Of a stretch of 40,146 nt of DNA, positions 11,505 through 39,088 are shown piece by piece (position 1 is the first letter of the stretch; every line of letters begins with the position of its first letter). A program made the translations under genes and the position numbers. Below the pieces are notes generated by a model. That model had not been told where the DNA came from, searched no databases, and saw only the letters and a program-made list of their open reading frames with translations. Source of the DNA: an uncultured Bacilli bacterium (lineage in GTDB: Bacteria > Bacillota_I > Bacilli_A > RF39 > UBA660); NCBI GenBank assembly GCA_944332725.1, contig CALVKO010000007.1, forward strand, positions 1-40,146. Reading direction: 5' to 3'.

Positions 11505-13190
11505 CTATCTTTTAACATATCCACCAACGAAAGCCTCTATAGTACTGCTATAAAGTTTCATTGTTTTATTTGATGAAAATTCTATTTGCAATTCTTTAAA
11601 TTTCTTTTGTTTTATTCGATATACGATATATCCCTTAGTTTCTTCGTAAGTATTAATAGTTATATAATCTCCATTATCTTTTTTTACTTTTACAGTAATA
11701 TCACCATCACAAACTGCAGTACCACCTCTTTTATTAGTAGTTTTTAAAAATTGTGGTGCGTTAAAATCTTCTTTAGGTAAAGTCCAAACTGAACTTACAT
11801 TACCGTCAGTTTTCGTTAAAGTATAAATTTGATTATTCATACCTAAATAAAGCATTCCATCTTTTACACGAGTACAAGTGACCTCGTAAGGTAATTCCCA
11901 ATAATACCATTCATATTCAATACTAACTCCCTGATATTTTTGTCTTGAATCGGCTAAATAAACATGCTTACCAATAAATACAAGTAAATAGCCTTCCCAT
12001 TCTTCTAAAATCATATCTTTGTAATTGGTTTCTGATAATAATTTGCTATCAACCATTGAACTTCTGTGACTTAATACTTGTTCAGTTGTTACATCACTAC
12101 TTATTGCTTCCATACCTCTATCGCTAAAAAAACATATATCATCGTTAAAATTAATTCCCGTTGCTACACATCCAGTTGAAATACTTGAGTGCGTACTAGG
12201 ATAAATTTTTCCATATGTATTGTCTATTACTGGATTATGATAATAAATAGTTGTATTAGCTTGTGAAGGTTCTTTAAATACCCATAAAGCATTGTTACCT
12301 GCTACCATTGATTTGACTGGAGATACATCTAATCCTTCATTATAATAATCTAAATCACTAACATATTCTGGGTCTTCCAATGAGCTATGAAAGACAACAT
12401 TAGGATAATTTTGATTACCACTAAAAAACACACGGTTGTCAAATTCGGTTAAAAGAGTACATTTTAAAATTCTATCTCTATAACCTTGTACTGTTTTACT
12501 AAATGTAATTACCACATTGTCTTGTCCTGATGTTGTTGGTTTAGCTGGTGCTGTATTAAATGTTACTTTACCAGCAGTTCTATCTACAGTTAATCCCATA
12601 CCTTCAACTATTGTTAAATCATTTACAACAGCCGTAACAGTATAATTTGTGTCTAAATTATCCGTGTCTAACTGATAGACTGTACTTGTTCCGTCAGCTA
12701 CAAAAGAATTTTTTCTAATACCCGTTAATAAATTGACATCTTGATAAGTCGTTCCAGCCCCACTAGGAGCTTTTCCAGTCGATGTAATAGGAATAGTGCC
12801 CTCAACACTTTTAACCTCTGTACCGTCGTATTTTAGATAATTTATACCGTCTTTTATATATAAAATTTCATTAAATACAAAATATTGACTTTTAGTAATA
12901 TTCATACCTACAAATATTTGTTCACTATTGTCATATAATTTAGTACCACAATGAACAATTTTATGAAGAGTATCACTTTTAGTATAAAAAAACATACCAT
13001 AAATAACATTATCGTATGTTTCTTTTAATTCAATATCCGGTCTTGTTTCTACGCAACGAGCATTTTCTTTATAATTTTTCCACATATTCAAAGAAAAAGG
13101 ACTTCTTGAAGTGACAATTTCTCCATCGTTGAAATCTACACCTCTAAAGTCCTTGTATTCTCTTCTTACTAAATCGCCACTAGAAGCCAT
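11505..13190 (-). CDS. P22 gp10-like tail nozzle / DNA-stabilisation protein, 561 aa
   Basis: The protein opens with DFRGVDFNDGEIVTSRSPFSLNMW, typical of phage stabilisation proteins that close the portal channel and form the nozzle of short-tailed phages. The remaining sequence is a run of beta blades (YGMFFYTK, FNEILYIKDGINYLKYDG, NRVFFSGNQNYPN, ALWVFKEPSQANTTIYY, DICFFSDRGMEAISSD, YLLVFIGKHVYLADS), consistent with a beta-propeller-like fold. It lies directly after the connector gene. The start chosen is the ATG at 13190 with GGTGAGG upstream; it overlaps the connector stop. Upstream GTG codons at 13199-13202 lack a ribosome site. Confidence 0.75.
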   Translation of the reverse strand: MASSGDLVRREYKDFRGVDFNDGEIVTSRSPFSLNMWKNYKENARCVETRPDIELKETYDNVIYGMFFYTKSDTLHKIVHCGTKLYDNSEQIFVGMNITKSQYFVFNEILYIKDGINYLKYDGTEVKSVEGTIPITSTGKAPSGAGTTYQDVNLLTGIRKNSFVADGTSTVYQLDTDNLDTNYTVTAVVNDLTIVEGMGLTVDRTAGKVTFNTAPAKPTTSGQDNVVITFSKTVQGYRDRILKCTLLTEFDNRVFFSGNQNYPNVVFHSSLEDPEYVSDLDYYNEGLDVSPVKSMVAGNNALWVFKEPSQANTTIYYHNPVIDNTYGKIYPSTHSSISTGCVATGINFNDDICFFSDRGMEAISSDVTTEQVLSHRSSMVDSKLLSETNYKDMILEEWEGYLLVFIGKHVYLADSRQKYQGVSIEYEWYYWELPYEVTCTRVKDGMLYLGMNNQIYTLTKTDGNVSSVWTLPKEDFNAPQFLKTTNKRGGTAVCDGDITVKVKKDNGDYITINTYEETKGYIVYRIKQKKFKELQIEFSSNKTMKLYSSTIEAFVGGYVKR

Positions 13191-13725
13191 AATCCTCACC
13201 ACTTATATAAAATGATCCCGTTGAATATCTTGGATCAATTCTCTGTATCATACTTTCATATCTATTAGCATAAACTTGACCGTAATTTGCCGAAATATCA
13301 GACTTCAATAAATCTCCAGCTACACCGTAAGGTAAAACTTGCATTAAATCGATAGGTAATTCAAATTCATATGCACTAGCATTTTCATCAGTTATTAAAG
13401 TCGGATATTTGTAATAAAAAACATTAGCTGTACCATCTTCTTCAAATATAACAGTATTATCAACAATATTGTGCTTAACTCCTCGAATCATATTTAATTG
13501 AAATAAATCATCAGCCAGTTCTGTAAATGATTTTACTTCATTTTCTTTTACTTCTATTGTTTTATTAGTTGGTAATTTCTTTAATCTTACTAATTCAATC
13601 ATAATTTGATTGATAACATAATTTATTTTAGCTGAAATATCAGGGTCATCAGTTAACAATTCACTTTCTGGGTTCAATTCTTCTATCATTGCTAAAATTT
13701 GCTTTTTTACATCAGTTAAACTCAT
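13180..13725 (-). CDS. Head-tail connector / adaptor, 181 aa
   Basis: A small helical protein starting MSLTDVKKQILAMIEELNPE, with PDISAKINYVINQIMIELVRL, and ending with DLLKSDISANYGQVYANRYE and a Pro/Arg turn (RIDPRYSTG). This pattern matches head-completion adaptors that bind the portal ring (P22 gp4-like or HK97 gp6-like in role). The chosen start has GGAGGG six bases upstream; longer in-frame versions starting further upstream would overlap the previous gene. Its gene order, decoration - connector - nozzle, is that of short-tailed phages. Confidence 0.7.
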   Translation of the reverse strand: MSLTDVKKQILAMIEELNPESELLTDDPDISAKINYVINQIMIELVRLKKLPTNKTIEVKENEVKSFTELADDLFQLNMIRGVKHNIVDNTVIFEEDGTANVFYYKYPTLITDENASAYEFELPIDLMQVLPYGVAGDLLKSDISANYGQVYANRYESMIQRIDPRYSTGSFYISGEDYGF

Positions 13726-13726
13726 A

Positions 13727-14092
13727 TTATCCCTCCATTGCTTTTTTAGTTCCATCTTCAATTGGTTTTGTAATATCAACTATTTTAGATAACAATTCTT
13801 TTGCTTCTTCCGGTTTTACCATATTATAGTTTGGAATTATATATCCATTAGTTTCATCCCATAATAATACAGTTCCTAAAGGTACTTGTGTTTCCATTTT
13901 ACTTGTTTCAGTTGATTTTATATCATTATAATTTAGTTCTCTTTTAATATGAGTTGTTAAAACACCTTTATTAAAAACTTGATGAACTGTTTTATCATCA
14001 TTATAAACATCAAATTTAGTATTTTTATCTACTTTTATACCTCCGAATGTCTTTATACTTGGCTGTACTACAAAATATTCTAATTTTTCCAT
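13727..14092 (-). CDS. Head-associated hypothetical protein, 121 aa
   Basis: A mainly beta protein starting MEKLEYFVVQPSIKTFGG, with a PLGTVLLWDETNGYIIPNY segment and a helical end (KPEEAKELLSKIVDITKP). It lies between the decoration protein and the connector, so it is likely part of the capsid (head fibre, or vertex or decoration protein), but no family was recognised. The start at 14092 has AAAGGAGA at the right spacing. A longer frame running back to 14146 would translate through the tRNA-like hairpin at 14106-14148 and has no ribosome site, so it was not used. Confidence 0.6.
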   Translation of the reverse strand: MEKLEYFVVQPSIKTFGGIKVDKNTKFDVYNDDKTVHQVFNKGVLTTHIKRELNYNDIKSTETSKMETQVPLGTVLLWDETNGYIIPNYNMVKPEEAKELLSKIVDITKPIEDGTKKAMEG

Positions 14093-14105
14093 ATATAATC
14101 TCCTT

Positions 14106-14148
14106 TCATGTTTTCGAGAATCGAACTCGAACAATACCTTTAACATGA
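14106..14148 (-). ncRNA. tRNA acceptor/T-arm-like minihelix upstream of the capsid-region gene
   Basis: Read on the minus strand this 43-nt element folds without loose ends: a 7-bp stem (TCATGTT / AACATGA), a 10-nt 5' bulge in place of the D and anticodon arms, then a 6-bp stem (TTCGAG / CTCGAA) closing the loop TTCGATT. The 5-bp T-stem plus 7-nt loop is the hallmark of a tRNA T-arm and shares AGTTCGATTCT with the real tRNA-Gln in this phage. No CCA follows; AAAGGAGA, the ribosome site of the next gene, comes instead. It may be an mRNA processing signal or the remnant of a tRNA. Confidence 0.5.
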
Positions 14149-14149
14149 T

Positions 14150-14170
14150 GAAAAGGGCTATTTTGCCCTT
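14150..14170 (-). terminator. Hairpin after the decoration gene, possible weak terminator
   Basis: The minus strand reads AAGGGC-AAAATA-GCCCTT followed by TTC, a 6-bp stem that begins at the stop codon of the decoration gene. The short T-run suggests partial termination or 3' end protection of the abundant coat mRNA, with read-through into the connector and tail genes. Confidence 0.5.
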
Positions 14171-14522
14171 AAAATTCTACTACTACTGCTTTAATAGCTG
14201 CATTTTCACTATCGAAAGTGACTTTTTTGGTAACAGCATCCATATATTTAGCAGTTTCAACTGGTACAACAGCGATTTTACCAGCACCAATTTCTACTAC
14301 CTTATCAGCTACTGCTCCAGCATAACATTTATTAACTGGAGCTTTAATAGTTAAATCATATGGATTAGAAGCATCAGTATTTTCAACAATTAAAAGTGTT
14401 CTTTCATCTTGTTTTTCTACTGTATACTCTAAACCGTCAGTAGTTGAAGCAGTTAAAGTGCCAACATTAACTTCATTGTATTTTGCTTTAATTTTGGCAC
14501 TATCTAAATTTACAATTGCCAT
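14169..14522 (-). CDS. Capsid decoration / coat-associated protein, 117 aa
   Basis: A small beta protein directly after the major coat gene, Ala/Val/Thr-rich, with YTVEKQDERTLLIVENTDAS, NKCYAGAVADKVVEIGAGK and IAVVPVETAKYMDAV. Proteins of this size and composition following a coat gene usually bind the outside of the capsid. A hairpin sits on its stop codon, as often seen after highly expressed coat genes. No named family could be confirmed by eye. Ribosome site AAAGGTAAGG. Confidence 0.6.
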   Translation of the reverse strand: MAIVNLDSAKIKAKYNEVNVGTLTASTTDGLEYTVEKQDERTLLIVENTDASNPYDLTIKAPVNKCYAGAVADKVVEIGAGKIAVVPVETAKYMDAVTKKVTFDSENAAIKAVVVEF

Positions 14523-14541: not shown

Positions 14542-15372
14542 CTAATAAATTGGGAATAAATAAATTTGTTCAGGGCGTACAATTTTTGCACCAAAAACAT
14601 ATAAACCTTTAATAGCATCACTAAATGCATCTTGTGGACGATATGCTTCCACTTTATCAATTTGACCAGCAAATGCAATGGCTTTATTAGTACGTAACAT
14701 TGCTAATTTGCAATCACGAGTACCATCATGCCATGTTGCTAATAGATTTTCAATAGAAATTAACGCATTACCATATTTACCTACATAACCTTTTTTAATT
14801 AATTCGCTATTATTAGTATCTAATTCGATAATTGAAGGGCGTAAATGAGTATACCATTCTGGAGTTAATTCTAAATGATAAGTATCTGTAATTTTACAGT
14901 TGTTTTCATATAGAGTTTTAAATCCAGTTTCGATTAATGCAATACCACCGTCAGCTTCTTCTGAAATATCAGTTGAAGGTGCTGATGCCAAATCATTTTT
15001 ATTTGTTGCTGTTAAACTTGCAACATACTTGTCAGCTTCCTCTGATAATCCTAAAGTAGCTTCTTTAGATAAGTTTTCAATTAATCCAGGTTTTGCTTGT
15101 GCTTTTTCTACATCGTCTACTTCAAAATCGAAATATTTGAATTGATCAATGTCTAAAAATTGACTGTTGTCTGTTCCACCTTCACGAACTAATGGTGTAC
15201 CAGGTACATAAGTACGAATTGTAGGTCTATTAACTCCTAAAATTTTAATGCGTTCTGCTTGTTTTACTTCTCCTTCAAATTGAAAATCACAATGGTCTTT
15301 TAATGATGTTATGGTTTCTAATTGGTGTTGAATTTTTGCACTCCAGACAGTTTGTTTGAAATTTGCTATCAT
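14542..15372 (-). CDS. Major capsid (coat) protein, 276 aa
   Basis: Forms the icosahedral shell (expected HK97 fold). Features include an N-arm (MIANFKQTVWSAKIQHQLE), a spine-like region with ERIKILGVNRPTIRTY, a small-helix region (SKEATLGLSEEADKYVASL), and a C-terminal segment with NKAIAFAGQIDKVEAYRPQ and GLYVFGAKIVRPEQIYLFP, typical of coat proteins of short-tailed phages of Gram-positives. It follows the scaffold gene and precedes the decoration gene. The ribosome site GGAAGGAGAAG is strong. No internal cleavage site or protease domain is visible. Confidence 0.8.
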   Translation of the reverse strand: MIANFKQTVWSAKIQHQLETITSLKDHCDFQFEGEVKQAERIKILGVNRPTIRTYVPGTPLVREGGTDNSQFLDIDQFKYFDFEVDDVEKAQAKPGLIENLSKEATLGLSEEADKYVASLTATNKNDLASAPSTDISEEADGGIALIETGFKTLYENNCKITDTYHLELTPEWYTHLRPSIIELDTNNSELIKKGYVGKYGNALISIENLLATWHDGTRDCKLAMLRTNKAIAFAGQIDKVEAYRPQDAFSDAIKGLYVFGAKIVRPEQIYLFPIY

Positions 15373-18565: not shown

Positions 18566-18752
18566 TGCTTTCCTCCTCCGTATTAAATATTAGTCCTATA
18601 AATGGACTATTTATTGAATGTGAAGTTATTTGAACATTGTCATCAATAACAATCAATCCTTCTTCCATTTCTTTAATTAATTTTGTTCTATACATTTCTC
18701 TTGACTTATCATCAATTATTCCTTGTAATTTAACTACAATTAATGTTAGCAT
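18531..18752 (-). CDS. Hypothetical protein, 73 aa
   Basis: Starts MLTLIVVKLQGIIDDKSREM and contains MEEGLIVIDDNVQITSHSIN, then an acidic Glu/Asn-rich end. The beginning is beta-like and the end looks disordered. It is coupled to the terminase: its ATG overlaps the TAA of the large subunit gene (TAATG). No family is recognised. Expected to be a packaging or head accessory protein from position alone. Confidence 0.5.
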   Translation of the reverse strand: MLTLIVVKLQGIIDDKSREMYRTKLIKEMEEGLIVIDDNVQITSHSINSPFIGLIFNTEEESNEKEENKRNES

Positions 18753-20242
18753 TATATAACTTGTATCTCCTCTCCATAATCTAAATTATTTTGTTTTTCA
18801 AAATTGAAATTAAATACTTGTTGAATTGTTATAGGCTCTTCATAATAAACAACTTGATTTCTTGCATAATAAGCAATAGCTAATCCCATAACCAAGTCAT
18901 CGTGTGCCCCTTCTTGTGCTTCTGGTCTACCTTTCTCATTTCTAACAAAAGTTAACATTTCTTCTAATGTCAATTTGTCATTGATTAGTTCGACATTTTC
19001 ACGCACAATTTTAACTAATTCAGCTATTATAACTGGTCTTGTTATGCTAGTAGTTTTAAAACCATACGACTTGTCCATAATACCAGTAAACCTATCTTCT
19101 TTTTCTCTAACATACAAATTAGGGTATCCTATTCTTGCTAGTTCTTTGTTAGGATAACTACTAAAATTGCTTTCTATACAAATCAAGGCTGGTTTTGTCT
19201 TACCTTTATTATTGCTACTGTAATAGTAGCCTAGACAATACATTTGTCTAACATACAAATCTTCGTCCATTTGATGTCTTAACCTAGCAACCTGTTTCCC
19301 AGTTTTAGCATTTAAAACATGACCAGTAAACCAATCCGACCCCTCGCCAGCAGTATCCCCACCAATACAGTAATGGTTCAAATTTGGCGTTTCATATATT
19401 TCTATATAACCATTTTTATCATTTATCCATCTAATATCAGTTATTTTTTTACCAATAGGTTTTGTATCATCATATTTATATTCAAAATATCCTATTTTTA
19501 ATGGTTTAGTTATCTCTGATAATCTTTTGCTTACTTGTCTTGCATCGAATACAGTCTTACCTAACACACCCCATTGACCCAAACAATAAACATTGTAATA
19601 ATATTCATCTGTATCTTTATAACTTTCAAGCAATTTTTTATAATCTTCATCCAAAAATTCATTATCTTTATAAGTTGTATGACATATTGTTACATTATCT
19701 CTTAAAATATCAAAAAATCTTTTTTTCAACCAATGATTTATGTCTATCGGATTAAATGATAAAACTATTTGTTTCTTTGTTCCTTTACCACGCAAACGAA
19801 CATCTAATTGATTAAAGTCACTTTCTAATATTTCGGAAGCTTCTTCTATCCATATGTCCGTAAGTTCACCTTTACTAAAAGTAACTGATTTTAGTTTTTC
19901 TACATCGTCCAATCCACTAAAAATAATCTCATTACCATTTAATAATGATTTTATTCTTAAGTCACTTTCATTTATCTTAAAATATTTACTCAATTTCCAT
20001 TTATTTATTACTTGTTTAAATAAAGCGAATGTTGAATCTCTATTACTTTTACCAGTAGCACGAACTACTAATAAGTTCATCATTTTTTGCTGTAGTATCT
20101 TTTTGATATATCTTTCTACTACAAAATAGGATTTGCCACTACCAGCACCACCATAAAATATTAAATATCTATTTAAATTATCTAAATATGGTAGATAAAC
20201 TTTATTAAATACTTTACTAGGAATTTTAATTGTTATTTCCAT
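18752..20242 (-). CDS. terL: Terminase large subunit, 496 aa
   Basis: The packaging motor and headful nuclease. Residues 31-38 form the Walker A motif (GGAGSGKS). Walker B with the catalytic Glu is DIWIEEASEI near 133-141, and the coupling motif is VLSFNPID near 160. The C-terminal RNase H-like nuclease carries its first acid in GGDTAGEGSDWFTGHV (about 291-306), ESNFSSYPNKELA in the middle, and ends with HDDLVMGLAIAYYA. This is the Terminase_3/PBSX-like family, full length. It is coupled to the small subunit: the end of that gene and this start share one base (TAATG). Confidence 0.93.
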   Translation of the reverse strand: MEITIKIPSKVFNKVYLPYLDNLNRYLIFYGGAGSGKSYFVVERYIKKILQQKMMNLLVVRATGKSNRDSTFALFKQVINKWKLSKYFKINESDLRIKSLLNGNEIIFSGLDDVEKLKSVTFSKGELTDIWIEEASEILESDFNQLDVRLRGKGTKKQIVLSFNPIDINHWLKKRFFDILRDNVTICHTTYKDNEFLDEDYKKLLESYKDTDEYYYNVYCLGQWGVLGKTVFDARQVSKRLSEITKPLKIGYFEYKYDDTKPIGKKITDIRWINDKNGYIEIYETPNLNHYCIGGDTAGEGSDWFTGHVLNAKTGKQVARLRHQMDEDLYVRQMYCLGYYYSSNNKGKTKPALICIESNFSSYPNKELARIGYPNLYVREKEDRFTGIMDKSYGFKTTSITRPVIIAELVKIVRENVELINDKLTLEEMLTFVRNEKGRPEAQEGAHDDLVMGLAIAYYARNQVVYYEEPITIQQVFNFNFEKQNNLDYGEEIQVI

Positions 20243-21336: not shown

Positions 21337-21411
21337 TGGTTCTCGAGGCTAGAATCGAACTAGCACATTATAGGTTCAAAGCCTATTGCCTTACCGTTTG
21401 GCTACTCGAGA
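21337..21411 (-). tRNA. tRNA-Gln (anticodon TTG)
   Basis: A full cloverleaf is present on the minus strand: acceptor stem TCTCGAG/CTCGAGA, D-arm GCCAAACGGTAAGGC, anticodon arm ATAGG-CTTTGAA-CCTAT with TTG at positions 34-36, T-arm GCTAG-TTCGATT-CTAGC, discriminator A and an encoded CCA. It reads CAA codons, the preferred Gln codon in this AT-rich phage. It lies inside the late transcript between a hairpin terminator and the HNH gene. Confidence 0.96.
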
Positions 21412-37705: not shown

Positions 37706-39088
37706 ATGGAAACAATAAAAAAAATAATTAATGCTGCAATATATATTCGTGTTAGTACAGAAGAACAAGTTAGACACGGTTACTCTTTGAATTCTCAAAA
37801 AGAAAGATTAATTGATTATTGTAAGCAAAAAAGTTATAAAATAACTGAAATATACGCTGACGAAGGAAAGTCTGCTCGTTCAAAATTAAATAGTCGAAAA
37901 GAATTACTACGACTAATTAATGATGCAAAATTGAAAAAATTTGATAGAATAGTTTTTTGGAGATTAGATCGTTGGTTTAGAAACATTTCAGATTATTATA
38001 AAATTCAAGAAATACTTGAAAAAAATCACATTGACTGGGAATGTTCTGATGAAGAATATAATACCACTACATCTAACGGAAGATTACATTTAAATATAAA
38101 ATTATCAATAGCTCAAAACGAATCAGATCAAACATCAGATAGAATAAAATTTAACTTTGATAATATGGTAAAAAATAAAAGAGCAATCCAAGGTTCACAT
38201 TGTATGCCACTAGGATATAAGGTTGTGGGAGAGGAGAAAAACAAACACGTCGTTAAAGATGAAGATACAAAAGATATAGTAAATGATATGTTTGAACATT
38301 TTAAAATATTTAATTCTATGCGCCAAACTATGTTATATATAAATAATAAATATAATTTATCAATCAATTATTATAGTATATGCCATTATTTTAAAAATGA
38401 ATTATATACCGGTATTTATAGAGGAATAGAAAATTATTGTGAGCCATATATAACAAAAGATGAATTTTTAGAAAATCAAAAGAGAATTAAAAGAAATGCA
38501 AAATCTAATCACGCTAAATATGATTATATCTTTAGAGGATTATTAAAATGCAGCGAATGTGGTCATAATTTAGCTGGATTTACTCACGCAACAACAAAAC
38601 CTAAATATAATAAAAAATATAAAAGTCCTGCCTATCGGTGCAACAAAGCATATAATTCTAAATTATGTACAAACAGAAGTCCTATTCTTGAATCTTCTCT
38701 TGAAAAATATTTACTAGCAAATTTTAAAGAGCATATTAAAGATATGATTATTAAATATTCATCAATTGAAACTAAACAAAAATTAAAAAAAATTGATACA
38801 AATAAAATAGAATCGAAAATAAATCGTGTAACAGAACTATATATTGAGGGAAAAATAAATAAAGAAAAATTTGATGAAAATTATAAACTTTTTTCACAAG
38901 AATTAGAAAATGCAAAAAAAATGGAAAATAATAAAAAAGATTTAAGTATTTATAATGAACTACTTGAAACTGATATAAATGAATTATACGAAAAATTAGA
39001 TAATGAATCTAAAAGAGCTTTTTGGCTTAAATATATTGATTATATTGAAAGAAGCAAGGATTTACAATACATAATACATTTCAAATAA
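37706..39088 (+). CDS. int: Large serine integrase, 460 aa
   Basis: Catalyses site-specific integration between attP and attB. The resolvase domain (residues about 9-155) has the nucleophile S17 in YIRVSTEEQ, further Arg in DRIVFWRLDRWFR, and the QNESDQTSDRIKF helix. The recombinase domain (about 165-270) contains CMPLGYKVVGEE. The zinc ribbon has LKCSECGHNL and YRCNKAYNSKLC, followed by a coiled coil (about 350-410) and an end resembling other such enzymes. Its stop is a few bases from the host junction, as usual. Controlled separately from the lysogeny operon, by the region with the inverted repeat. Confidence 0.95.
   Translation: METIKKIINAAIYIRVSTEEQVRHGYSLNSQKERLIDYCKQKSYKITEIYADEGKSARSKLNSRKELLRLINDAKLKKFDRIVFWRLDRWFRNISDYYKIQEILEKNHIDWECSDEEYNTTTSNGRLHLNIKLSIAQNESDQTSDRIKFNFDNMVKNKRAIQGSHCMPLGYKVVGEEKNKHVVKDEDTKDIVNDMFEHFKIFNSMRQTMLYINNKYNLSINYYSICHYFKNELYTGIYRGIENYCEPYITKDEFLENQKRIKRNAKSNHAKYDYIFRGLLKCSECGHNLAGFTHATTKPKYNKKYKSPAYRCNKAYNSKLCTNRSPILESSLEKYLLANFKEHIKDMIIKYSSIETKQKLKKIDTNKIESKINRVTELYIEGKINKEKFDENYKLFSQELENAKKMENNKKDLSIYNELLETDINELYEKLDNESKRAFWLKYIDYIERSKDLQYIIHFK

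What the first reader, a model, noticed from the sequence alone, without database searches (positions are those of the whole stretch)
14106..14148. A 43-nt tRNA acceptor/T-arm minihelix lies directly before a capsid-gene ribosome site
Seen: 7-bp acceptor-like stem, 10-nt insert, 6-bp T-arm-like stem with TTCGATT loop, all contiguous, followed by AAAGGAGA. The D and anticodon arms are absent. Known: acceptor plus T-arm minihelices are minimal substrates for RNase P and related enzymes. Inferred: it could mark a cut that separates the coat/decoration mRNA from the connector/tail mRNA, or be a shortened tRNA. The real tRNA-Gln in this phage likewise lies just before an ORF ribosome site (HNH gene).
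Basis: partly seen in the sequence, partly recalled or inferred. Interest (0 to 1): 0.75.

Follow-up and report, generated by a model that had tools for sequence, protein, structure and literature searches.

The report
Conserved phage mini-tRNA after capsid genes
The 43-base hairpin is one copy of an apparently undescribed, widely conserved family of stripped-down tRNAs (only the acceptor stem and T arm) that gut and rumen phages keep between their head and connector genes and have repeatedly exchanged for whole tRNAs, probably so that a host tRNA-trimming enzyme can cut the phage messenger there.

Summary
The helix is real (minus strand, 14106-14148), and its relatives make the case. Of 50 loci encoding capsid relatives, 43 carry the same element in the gap after the capsid (or capsid plus decoration) gene; 5 carry a complete tRNA there instead (Met, Met, Met, Gln, Pro); 2 have neither. 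On a capsid tree the 5 full-tRNA loci are separate lineages. In a plain sequence alignment of 35 elements, 10 of 11 base pairs show two-sided compensatory change (97% of cells paired, 73% after shuffling). Over 56 elements the invariant letters are those of a tRNA elbow (G53, U54, C56, A58, C61, plus an A-G in the insert), with A(-2)U(-1), a favoured RNase P cut site, at the 5' end and an encoded CCA in many. A terminator-type hairpin lies directly upstream and a Shine-Dalgarno site directly downstream. Outlying copies sit in a phage tRNA array, after a tmRNA gene and inside a bacterial tRNA operon. Rfam has no match; I found no report. Best explanation: a tRNA-like RNase P substrate that separates head mRNA from connector/tail mRNA. 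Cleavage itself is inferred.

The parts
14106..14148 (-). Mini-tRNA: U(-1) 14148; C1-U6 14147-14142; A7 14141; insert AAGGTATTGT 14140-14131; T stem 14130-14126/14118-14114; T loop TTCGATT 14125-14119; acceptor 3' strand 14113-14107; A73 14106
14153..14170 (-). Terminator-type hairpin AAGGGCAAAATAGCCCTT at the end of the upstream mRNA; its U tail runs to position -1 of the mini-tRNA
   Evidence: same arrangement in 35/35 elements. The consensus scanner did not score it as a terminator in the window
14099..14105 (-). Shine-Dalgarno-like AAGGAGA, starting directly after A73
13727..14092 (-). Downstream ORF, 121 aa, unknown function, conserved in L016/L017/L015
   Evidence: no PHROG hit and no Pfam hit above cut-off
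13180..13779 (-). ORF of phrog_13046 (function unknown; next to tail/tailspike genes in Bacillus phages Page and Pavlov), first gene of the presumed connector/tail part
14169..14522 (-). Small head-associated (decoration-like) gene directly upstream (phrog_16194, annotated 'tail protein')
14542..15372 (-). Major capsid protein gene
   Evidence: phrog_267, E 3e-29
21337..21411 (-). Complete tRNA-Gln (UUG) with encoded CCA, also between ORFs; comparison only

Best explanation
The element is a member of a conserved family of natural mini-tRNAs: a coaxial acceptor/T-arm helix whose T loop is met by an A-G (here G-G) from the short insert, imitating the G18/G19 elbow of tRNA, with no anticodon. In the late transcript it is most likely recognised by host RNase P and cut between U(-1) and C1. 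The head-gene mRNA is thereby released with a 3' end made of a stem-loop plus U tail, the same end that termination at that hairpin would give. The downstream connector/tail mRNA begins with a base-paired 5' end immediately before its ribosome-binding site. This is tRNA punctuation done with the smallest possible tRNA, letting the abundant head mRNA and the connector mRNA be stabilised separately. SHOWN: conservation, covariation, position, exchange with full tRNAs, A(-2)U(-1), elbow letters, frequent CCA. INFERRED: cleavage, the enzyme, and the effect on mRNA levels. UNKNOWN: whether the 3' end is also processed (RNase Z or exonucleases) to release a free 45-nt RNA.
For: (1) 43 of 50 capsid-relative loci have the mini-tRNA in the gap after the head genes; 5 have a complete tRNA there and no mini; the tree forces at least 5 separate exchanges. 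Met, Gln and Pro tRNAs are interchangeable with an anticodon-less element, so the shared need is the acceptor/T-arm end and not decoding. (2) Covariation: 10/11 pairs with two-sided changes, 89 such cells vs 19.7 shuffled, collapsing when the partner is slid; RNAalifold finds the same structure by itself. (3) Over 56 elements: U(-1) 55, A(-2) 49, G53/U54/C56/A58/C61 56 each, insert A-G 53 and 54. RNase P favours A(-2)U(-1), pairs with 3' RCC and contacts the T loop (PMC10731613), and stacks on the G19-C56 pair (PMC4810234). A(-2)U(-1) also holds in copies that do not follow a U tail (L077, L179, L138). (4) Terminator-type hairpin 4-7 nt from C1 in 31/35, Shine-Dalgarno within -4..+6 nt of position 76 in 34/35. 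(5) A different capsid family (L116-L118, phrog_1357) has the element at the same boundary, before the same phrog_13046 gene. (6) Copies lie in known RNase P contexts: the phage tRNA array of L077, after tmRNA in L179, between tRNA-Phe and tRNA-Ile in L180.
Against: No RNA-end data. The window copy lacks the CCA (AAAG; 12 of 35 elements have NCCA). C1:G72 is the usual first pair, whereas G1:C72 is commoner in tRNAs. A stable stem-loop close to the 5' leader can slow RNase P about 10-fold (PMC10731613). Nothing shows that head and connector mRNA levels differ. Capsid relatives in mycobacteriophages and other isolates lack the element.
Confidence: 0.63

Rival explanations
1. The mini-tRNA is cut out at both ends and acts in trans as a free, CCA-ended 45-nt RNA: a decoy for tRNA-handling enzymes or host defences, or an aminoacylated donor for a non-ribosomal reaction. 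Its place in the operon is only how it is made.
For: CCA is encoded in many copies, most often in those outside capsid loci. It occurs as a tRNA-operon member (L077, L180) and after tmRNA (L179). T-loop letter 55 is G in 54 of 56 copies, which would avoid TruB (inference).
Against: Acceptor sequences vary freely apart from C1:G72, so no amino-acid identity set is visible; no conserved single-stranded stretch for pairing; strict placement at the head/connector boundary; exchangeable with ordinary decoding tRNAs.
Confidence: 0.2
2. A cis element that is not cut: a structured 5' leader or spacer controlling translation or stability of the downstream gene.
For: It directly adjoins the ribosome-binding site in nearly all cases. 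The Shine-Dalgarno is predicted freer when the leader is removed (0.46 to 0.69).
Against: A shuffled leader gives the same occlusion (0.45), so that effect is not specific. A plain hairpin would not need a tRNA elbow, U(-1) or CCA, and would not be exchangeable with full tRNAs.
Confidence: 0.12
3. A decaying remnant of a tRNA gene that has lost its D and anticodon arms.
For: Full tRNAs occur at the same place in 5 relatives, one with a reduced D arm (L052); damaged tRNAs exist in these phages.
Against: Compensatory changes in 10 of 11 pairs, 97-99% paired cells and invariant elbow letters across capsids only 28-76% identical exclude decay. Minis are the majority state and full tRNAs are scattered tips.
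Confidence: 0.02
4. Chance hairpin, or part of an N-terminal extension of the downstream ORF (MLKVLFEFDSRKHERRLYM-).
For: The ORF is open through the element from ATG 14146 in the window; the descriptor has a chance rate of 0.155 per window.
Against: Conserved in dozens of loci; insert length varies without keeping frame; downstream proteins align from the ATG that follows the Shine-Dalgarno.
Confidence: 0.01

Closest known systems
tRNA-like RNAs that recruit RNase P to an mRNA or lncRNA 3' end (MALAT1 mascRNA, MEN-beta RNA; named from memory, tRNA mimicry by lncRNAs for RNase P end maturation noted in PMC4810234)
   Same: A tRNA-like element directly after a 3'-end-protecting structure; the RNase P cut makes the upstream 3' end; CCA-type tail
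   Different: Those keep a cloverleaf with a degenerate anticodon arm; this has no D or anticodon arm, is from phages/bacteria, and lies between cistrons of an operon. Cleavage is not shown here.
tRNA punctuation of animal mitochondrial transcripts (from memory)
   Same: tRNA folds between protein genes mark the cuts; five relatives use complete tRNAs at this site
   Different: Here mostly a mini-tRNA, one main site per phage, in bacterial operons with Shine-Dalgarno sites
Acceptor/T-arm minimal substrates of RNase P used in vitro (minimal substrates mentioned in PMC10731613)
   Same: Same minimal architecture of coaxial acceptor and T stems with T loop and RCCA
   Different: Those are engineered; this would be a natural, conserved gene family, and it adds a conserved A-G insert that can complete the elbow
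Armless or hairpin-like mitochondrial tRNAs of nematodes, mites and spiders (PMC7730189, PMC12221289, PMC6706885)
   Same: Natural, strongly shortened tRNAs
   Different: Those keep the anticodon and lose D and T arms; this keeps the T arm and loses the anticodon, so it cannot decode
Staphylococcal peptidoglycan tRNA-Gly with GUGC in place of GTPsiC (from memory)
   Same: T-loop GUGC, as in 54 of 56 minis
   Different: Full-length tRNA with an anticodon arm

Membership tests
tRNA gene (cloverleaf, Rfam RF00005) | Acceptor stem and T arm with T loop, coaxial 12-bp length | tested here: met
   (position 7:66 is usually A/A)
tRNA gene (cloverleaf, Rfam RF00005) | Anticodon arm | tested here: not met
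   Insert of 8-12 nt, no arm
tRNA gene (cloverleaf, Rfam RF00005) | D arm | tested here: not met
   Absent as an arm; only an A-G or G-G dinucleotide remains
tRNA gene (cloverleaf, Rfam RF00005) | Detected by tRNA models | tested here: not met
   ARAGORN and Rfam miss it; none of the minis in 8 relatives is matched at E <= 5
tRNA-like RNase P substrate | Elbow able to present a G19-C56 type pair | tested here: met
   By sequence only: C56 56/56, G at the 19-like place 54/56; letters 18 and 55 change together (A/G to G/U) in window and L046. 3D contact not shown
tRNA-like RNase P substrate | Favoured cleavage-site letters A(-2)U(-1) | tested here: met
   49/56 and 55/56; window has A(-2)U(-1)
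tRNA-like RNase P substrate | 3' RCCA | tested here: inconclusive
   Encoded in many copies, not in the window (AAAG); also missing in about a third of B. subtilis pre-tRNAs (PMC10731613)
tRNA-like RNase P substrate | Cleaved by RNase P in vivo or in vitro | not testable with these tools
   No RNA data
tRNA pseudogene | Loss of pairing and of conserved letters over time | tested here: not met
Any described Rfam RNA family | Covariance-model match | tested here: not met
Intrinsic terminator (upstream hairpin) | Stem-loop followed by a U run | tested here: inconclusive
   Stem-loop with U-rich tail in 35/35 loci, but the window copy has only 4 consecutive U and was not scored by the scanner

The most novel reading that the evidence does not exclude
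Anticodon-less, CCA-ended mini-tRNAs are a real class of cellular RNA made by phages and some bacteria from structural operons, tRNA arrays and tmRNA loci. They are matured by the tRNA-processing enzymes and work as free RNAs (as decoy, aminoacyl donor or regulator), with RNase P punctuation as their first use.
Probability: 0.25. Interest if true: 0.93.

Novelty: new variant of a known kind. Interest (0 to 1): 0.8.

Why it matters
Acceptor/T-arm minihelices have been laboratory models of RNase P recognition and a proposed ancestor of tRNA; a conserved natural gene family of them would be new. It would show tRNA punctuation working in phages, explain why some phages hold single tRNAs between structural genes, and give a natural test of what RNase P needs. 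The mini/full exchanges separate the processing role of a tRNA from its decoding role. A covariance model built from these alignments can be run on phage genomes now; neither ARAGORN nor Rfam sees the element.

Tried and rejected
Protein-level search with the downstream gene found no isolate phage and only the loci already held in IMG/VR. Rfam at E <= 5 on 8 relatives: no match to the element. blastn of a consensus element against isolate phages and plasmids: nothing credible. Capsid relatives in isolates (Tweety, AP45, phiSASD1, Javan262, prophiGD22-1, AGM3) and human-gut contig L121: no element. SD release by cleavage: apparent in folding but equal with shuffled leaders, rejected as evidence. 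N-terminal ORF extension and tRNA decay: rejected (see rivals). Very lax ARAGORN settings gave only noise. Pattern scan 62 also returned ordinary phage tRNAs with a TGCAA T loop and chance matches; only those the model supports were counted. Literature searches found no description; subscription papers and supplementary tables were not searchable.

Full report
WHAT IS THERE. The window is a prophage contig in a small low-GC Bacilli-type genome (G000:C7; the nearest named relative of the phage is in 'uncultured Bacilli bacterium'): serine integrase at 37706-39088 (+), terminase, portal, scaffold-size ORF and capsid running leftwards. Order around the element: capsid 14542-15372, small decoration-like gene 14169-14522, hairpin AAGGGCAAAATAGCCCTT (14170-14153), mini-tRNA, Shine-Dalgarno, 121-aa gene 13727-14092, then a phrog_13046 gene. 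By itself the helix is only mildly unlikely (0.155 descriptor hits per shuffled window), so relatives decide.

RELATIVES. Capsid relatives came from genomes of the same family and order (772 searched by then, with overlap between the draws), IMG/VR and GTDB contigs. The first four neighbours already settle the matter: L046, almost the same phage, keeps both stems and differs by an indel in the insert; L015 has TCATGTTAAGAGTAAATGTAGGTGCAACTCCTACAAACATGA; L017 has TCATTCTAAAAGTGTAGCAAGTGCAAATCTTGCAAGAATGA; L016, whose capsid and next gene are close to those of L017, has a complete tRNA-Met instead. Printing every gap after the capsid gene showed the element in nearly every relative, and an automatic extraction gave 35 distinct sequences.

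COVARIATION. On the MAFFT alignment A3 (sequence only, not fitted to structure), 97.4% of cells pair (72.9% in shuffles), 10 of 11 pairs change on both sides, and the covariation score is 0.660 against 0.185; sliding the partner by 1-3 columns drops pairing to 33-51%. RNAalifold returned the same 11 pairs unprompted. One bias to state: the extraction step chose the place by pairing and T-loop letters; the conserved insert, the U(-1) and the CCA were not used in the choice.

ANATOMY. A covariance model R1 finds at most one strong hit per phage and one in the window. In 56 aligned copies: A(-2) 49, U(-1) 55, A7 50, insert ...A-G-U/A... with A 53 and G 54, closing pair G53-C61 56, U54 56, C56 56, A58 56, U60 56, A73 43, C74 45. 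Letter 73 varies (A 43, U 9, G 4) while U(-1) does not, so U(-1) is kept as a base, not as a pair. Insert letter 18, loop letter 55 and letter 57 are A, G, A in nearly all, but G, U, G in the window and L046, i.e. the letters of ordinary tRNA; 18 and 55 pair in the tRNA elbow. This is one evolutionary event and therefore suggestive only.

LAYOUT. All 35 elements follow a stem-loop whose U-rich tail ends at position -1 (4-7 nt in 31), and in 34 of 35 a Shine-Dalgarno begins within -4 to +6 nt of position 76. Thus a cut at C1 would leave the upstream mRNA with the 3' end that termination at the hairpin would give.

EXCHANGE WITH FULL tRNAs. Complete tRNAs lie at the same site in L016 (Met), L019 (Gln), L032 (Met), L038 (Pro) and, with a reduced D arm not accepted by ARAGORN, L052 (Met). 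R1 finds no mini in any of these five. On a capsid tree the five are separate tips, and well-supported branches force at least five changes. L051 has another hairpin without a T loop; L044 is very distant.

BEYOND THE CAPSID FAMILY. A DNA pattern scan that used no protein gave 25 contigs; of the ten not already held, eight lie right after a capsid relative, one (L091) is cut short, and one (L077) is a 161-kb phage contig in which the mini follows tRNA-Lys at the end of a 19-tRNA array. A family search with R1 found three prophages with a different capsid (L116-L118; phrog_1357 tested on L116) carrying the element at the same boundary before a phrog_13046 gene. In a draw of 295 genomes over the phylum, the two hits besides our own are one directly after tmRNA (L179) and one between tRNA-Phe and tRNA-Ile in an 11-tRNA operon (L180); both were singletons among their relatives. 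Others: L119 before a scaffold-like gene, L120 beside a ribosomal-protein-S21-like gene, L138 and L174; L146, inside what looks like a split tRNA-Pro, is weak (27.9 bits).

HOW IT PROBABLY WORKS. Bacterial RNase P measures the acceptor/T stack, contacts the T loop, prefers A(-2)U(-1) and pairs with 3' RCC (PMC10731613); the exposed G19-C56 pair is a stacking platform for RNase P (PMC4810234). Nearly everything conserved here falls on those contacts, and the anticodon half is missing. With the exchange for full tRNAs of different identity, that points to processing rather than decoding. RNase P cleavage is therefore the likeliest function (inferred). Whether the 3' end is also cut is open: CCA-bearing copies should resist RNase Z (knowledge), leaving the helix as a 5' cap of the connector mRNA; CCA-less copies such as the window's might be cut.

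LIMITS. No RNA data; E-values of R1 are rough; most sequences are metagenomic; isolate-phage and plasmid collections gave nothing by blastn. Absence from the literature was tested only in open-access full text and without supplementary tables.

Noticed in passing
L146:6338-6384 (minus): A mini-tRNA-like sequence (27.9 bits) seems to sit inside the anticodon loop of a tRNA-Pro-like gene in an 81-kb phage contig, as if inserted in it or acting as an intron.
   Followed up: partly
L077:1-237 and L146:5159-5674 (minus): Two large phages with mini-tRNAs in their tRNA arrays carry a similar-looking downstream gene (LSAPWVTYYRKLEALF / LTTPWVEHYNKIEAFF); no PHROG match.
   Followed up: partly
L180:1501-1548 and L179:1501-1549: Mini-tRNAs inside a bacterial tRNA operon and directly after a tmRNA gene; absent from the related genomes searched.
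   Followed up: partly
window 21337-21411: At the place of the window's tRNA-Gln, the sister phage in G180 (L045, about 18737-18816) has a 5'-truncated tRNA-Ile-like sequence, so tRNA genes turn over quickly there.
   Followed up: partly
   Followed up: partly
L182 about 2420-2480: A GC-rich human-gut phage has a divergent minihelix (UCACG...CGUGA, inner hairpin with a 7-nt GGCAGTG loop) after a terminator in a comparable gap; not found by the model.
   Followed up: no
L119:10716-10764 (minus): A mini-tRNA lies upstream of scaffold and capsid genes rather than after the capsid, followed by a T-rich tract.
   Followed up: no
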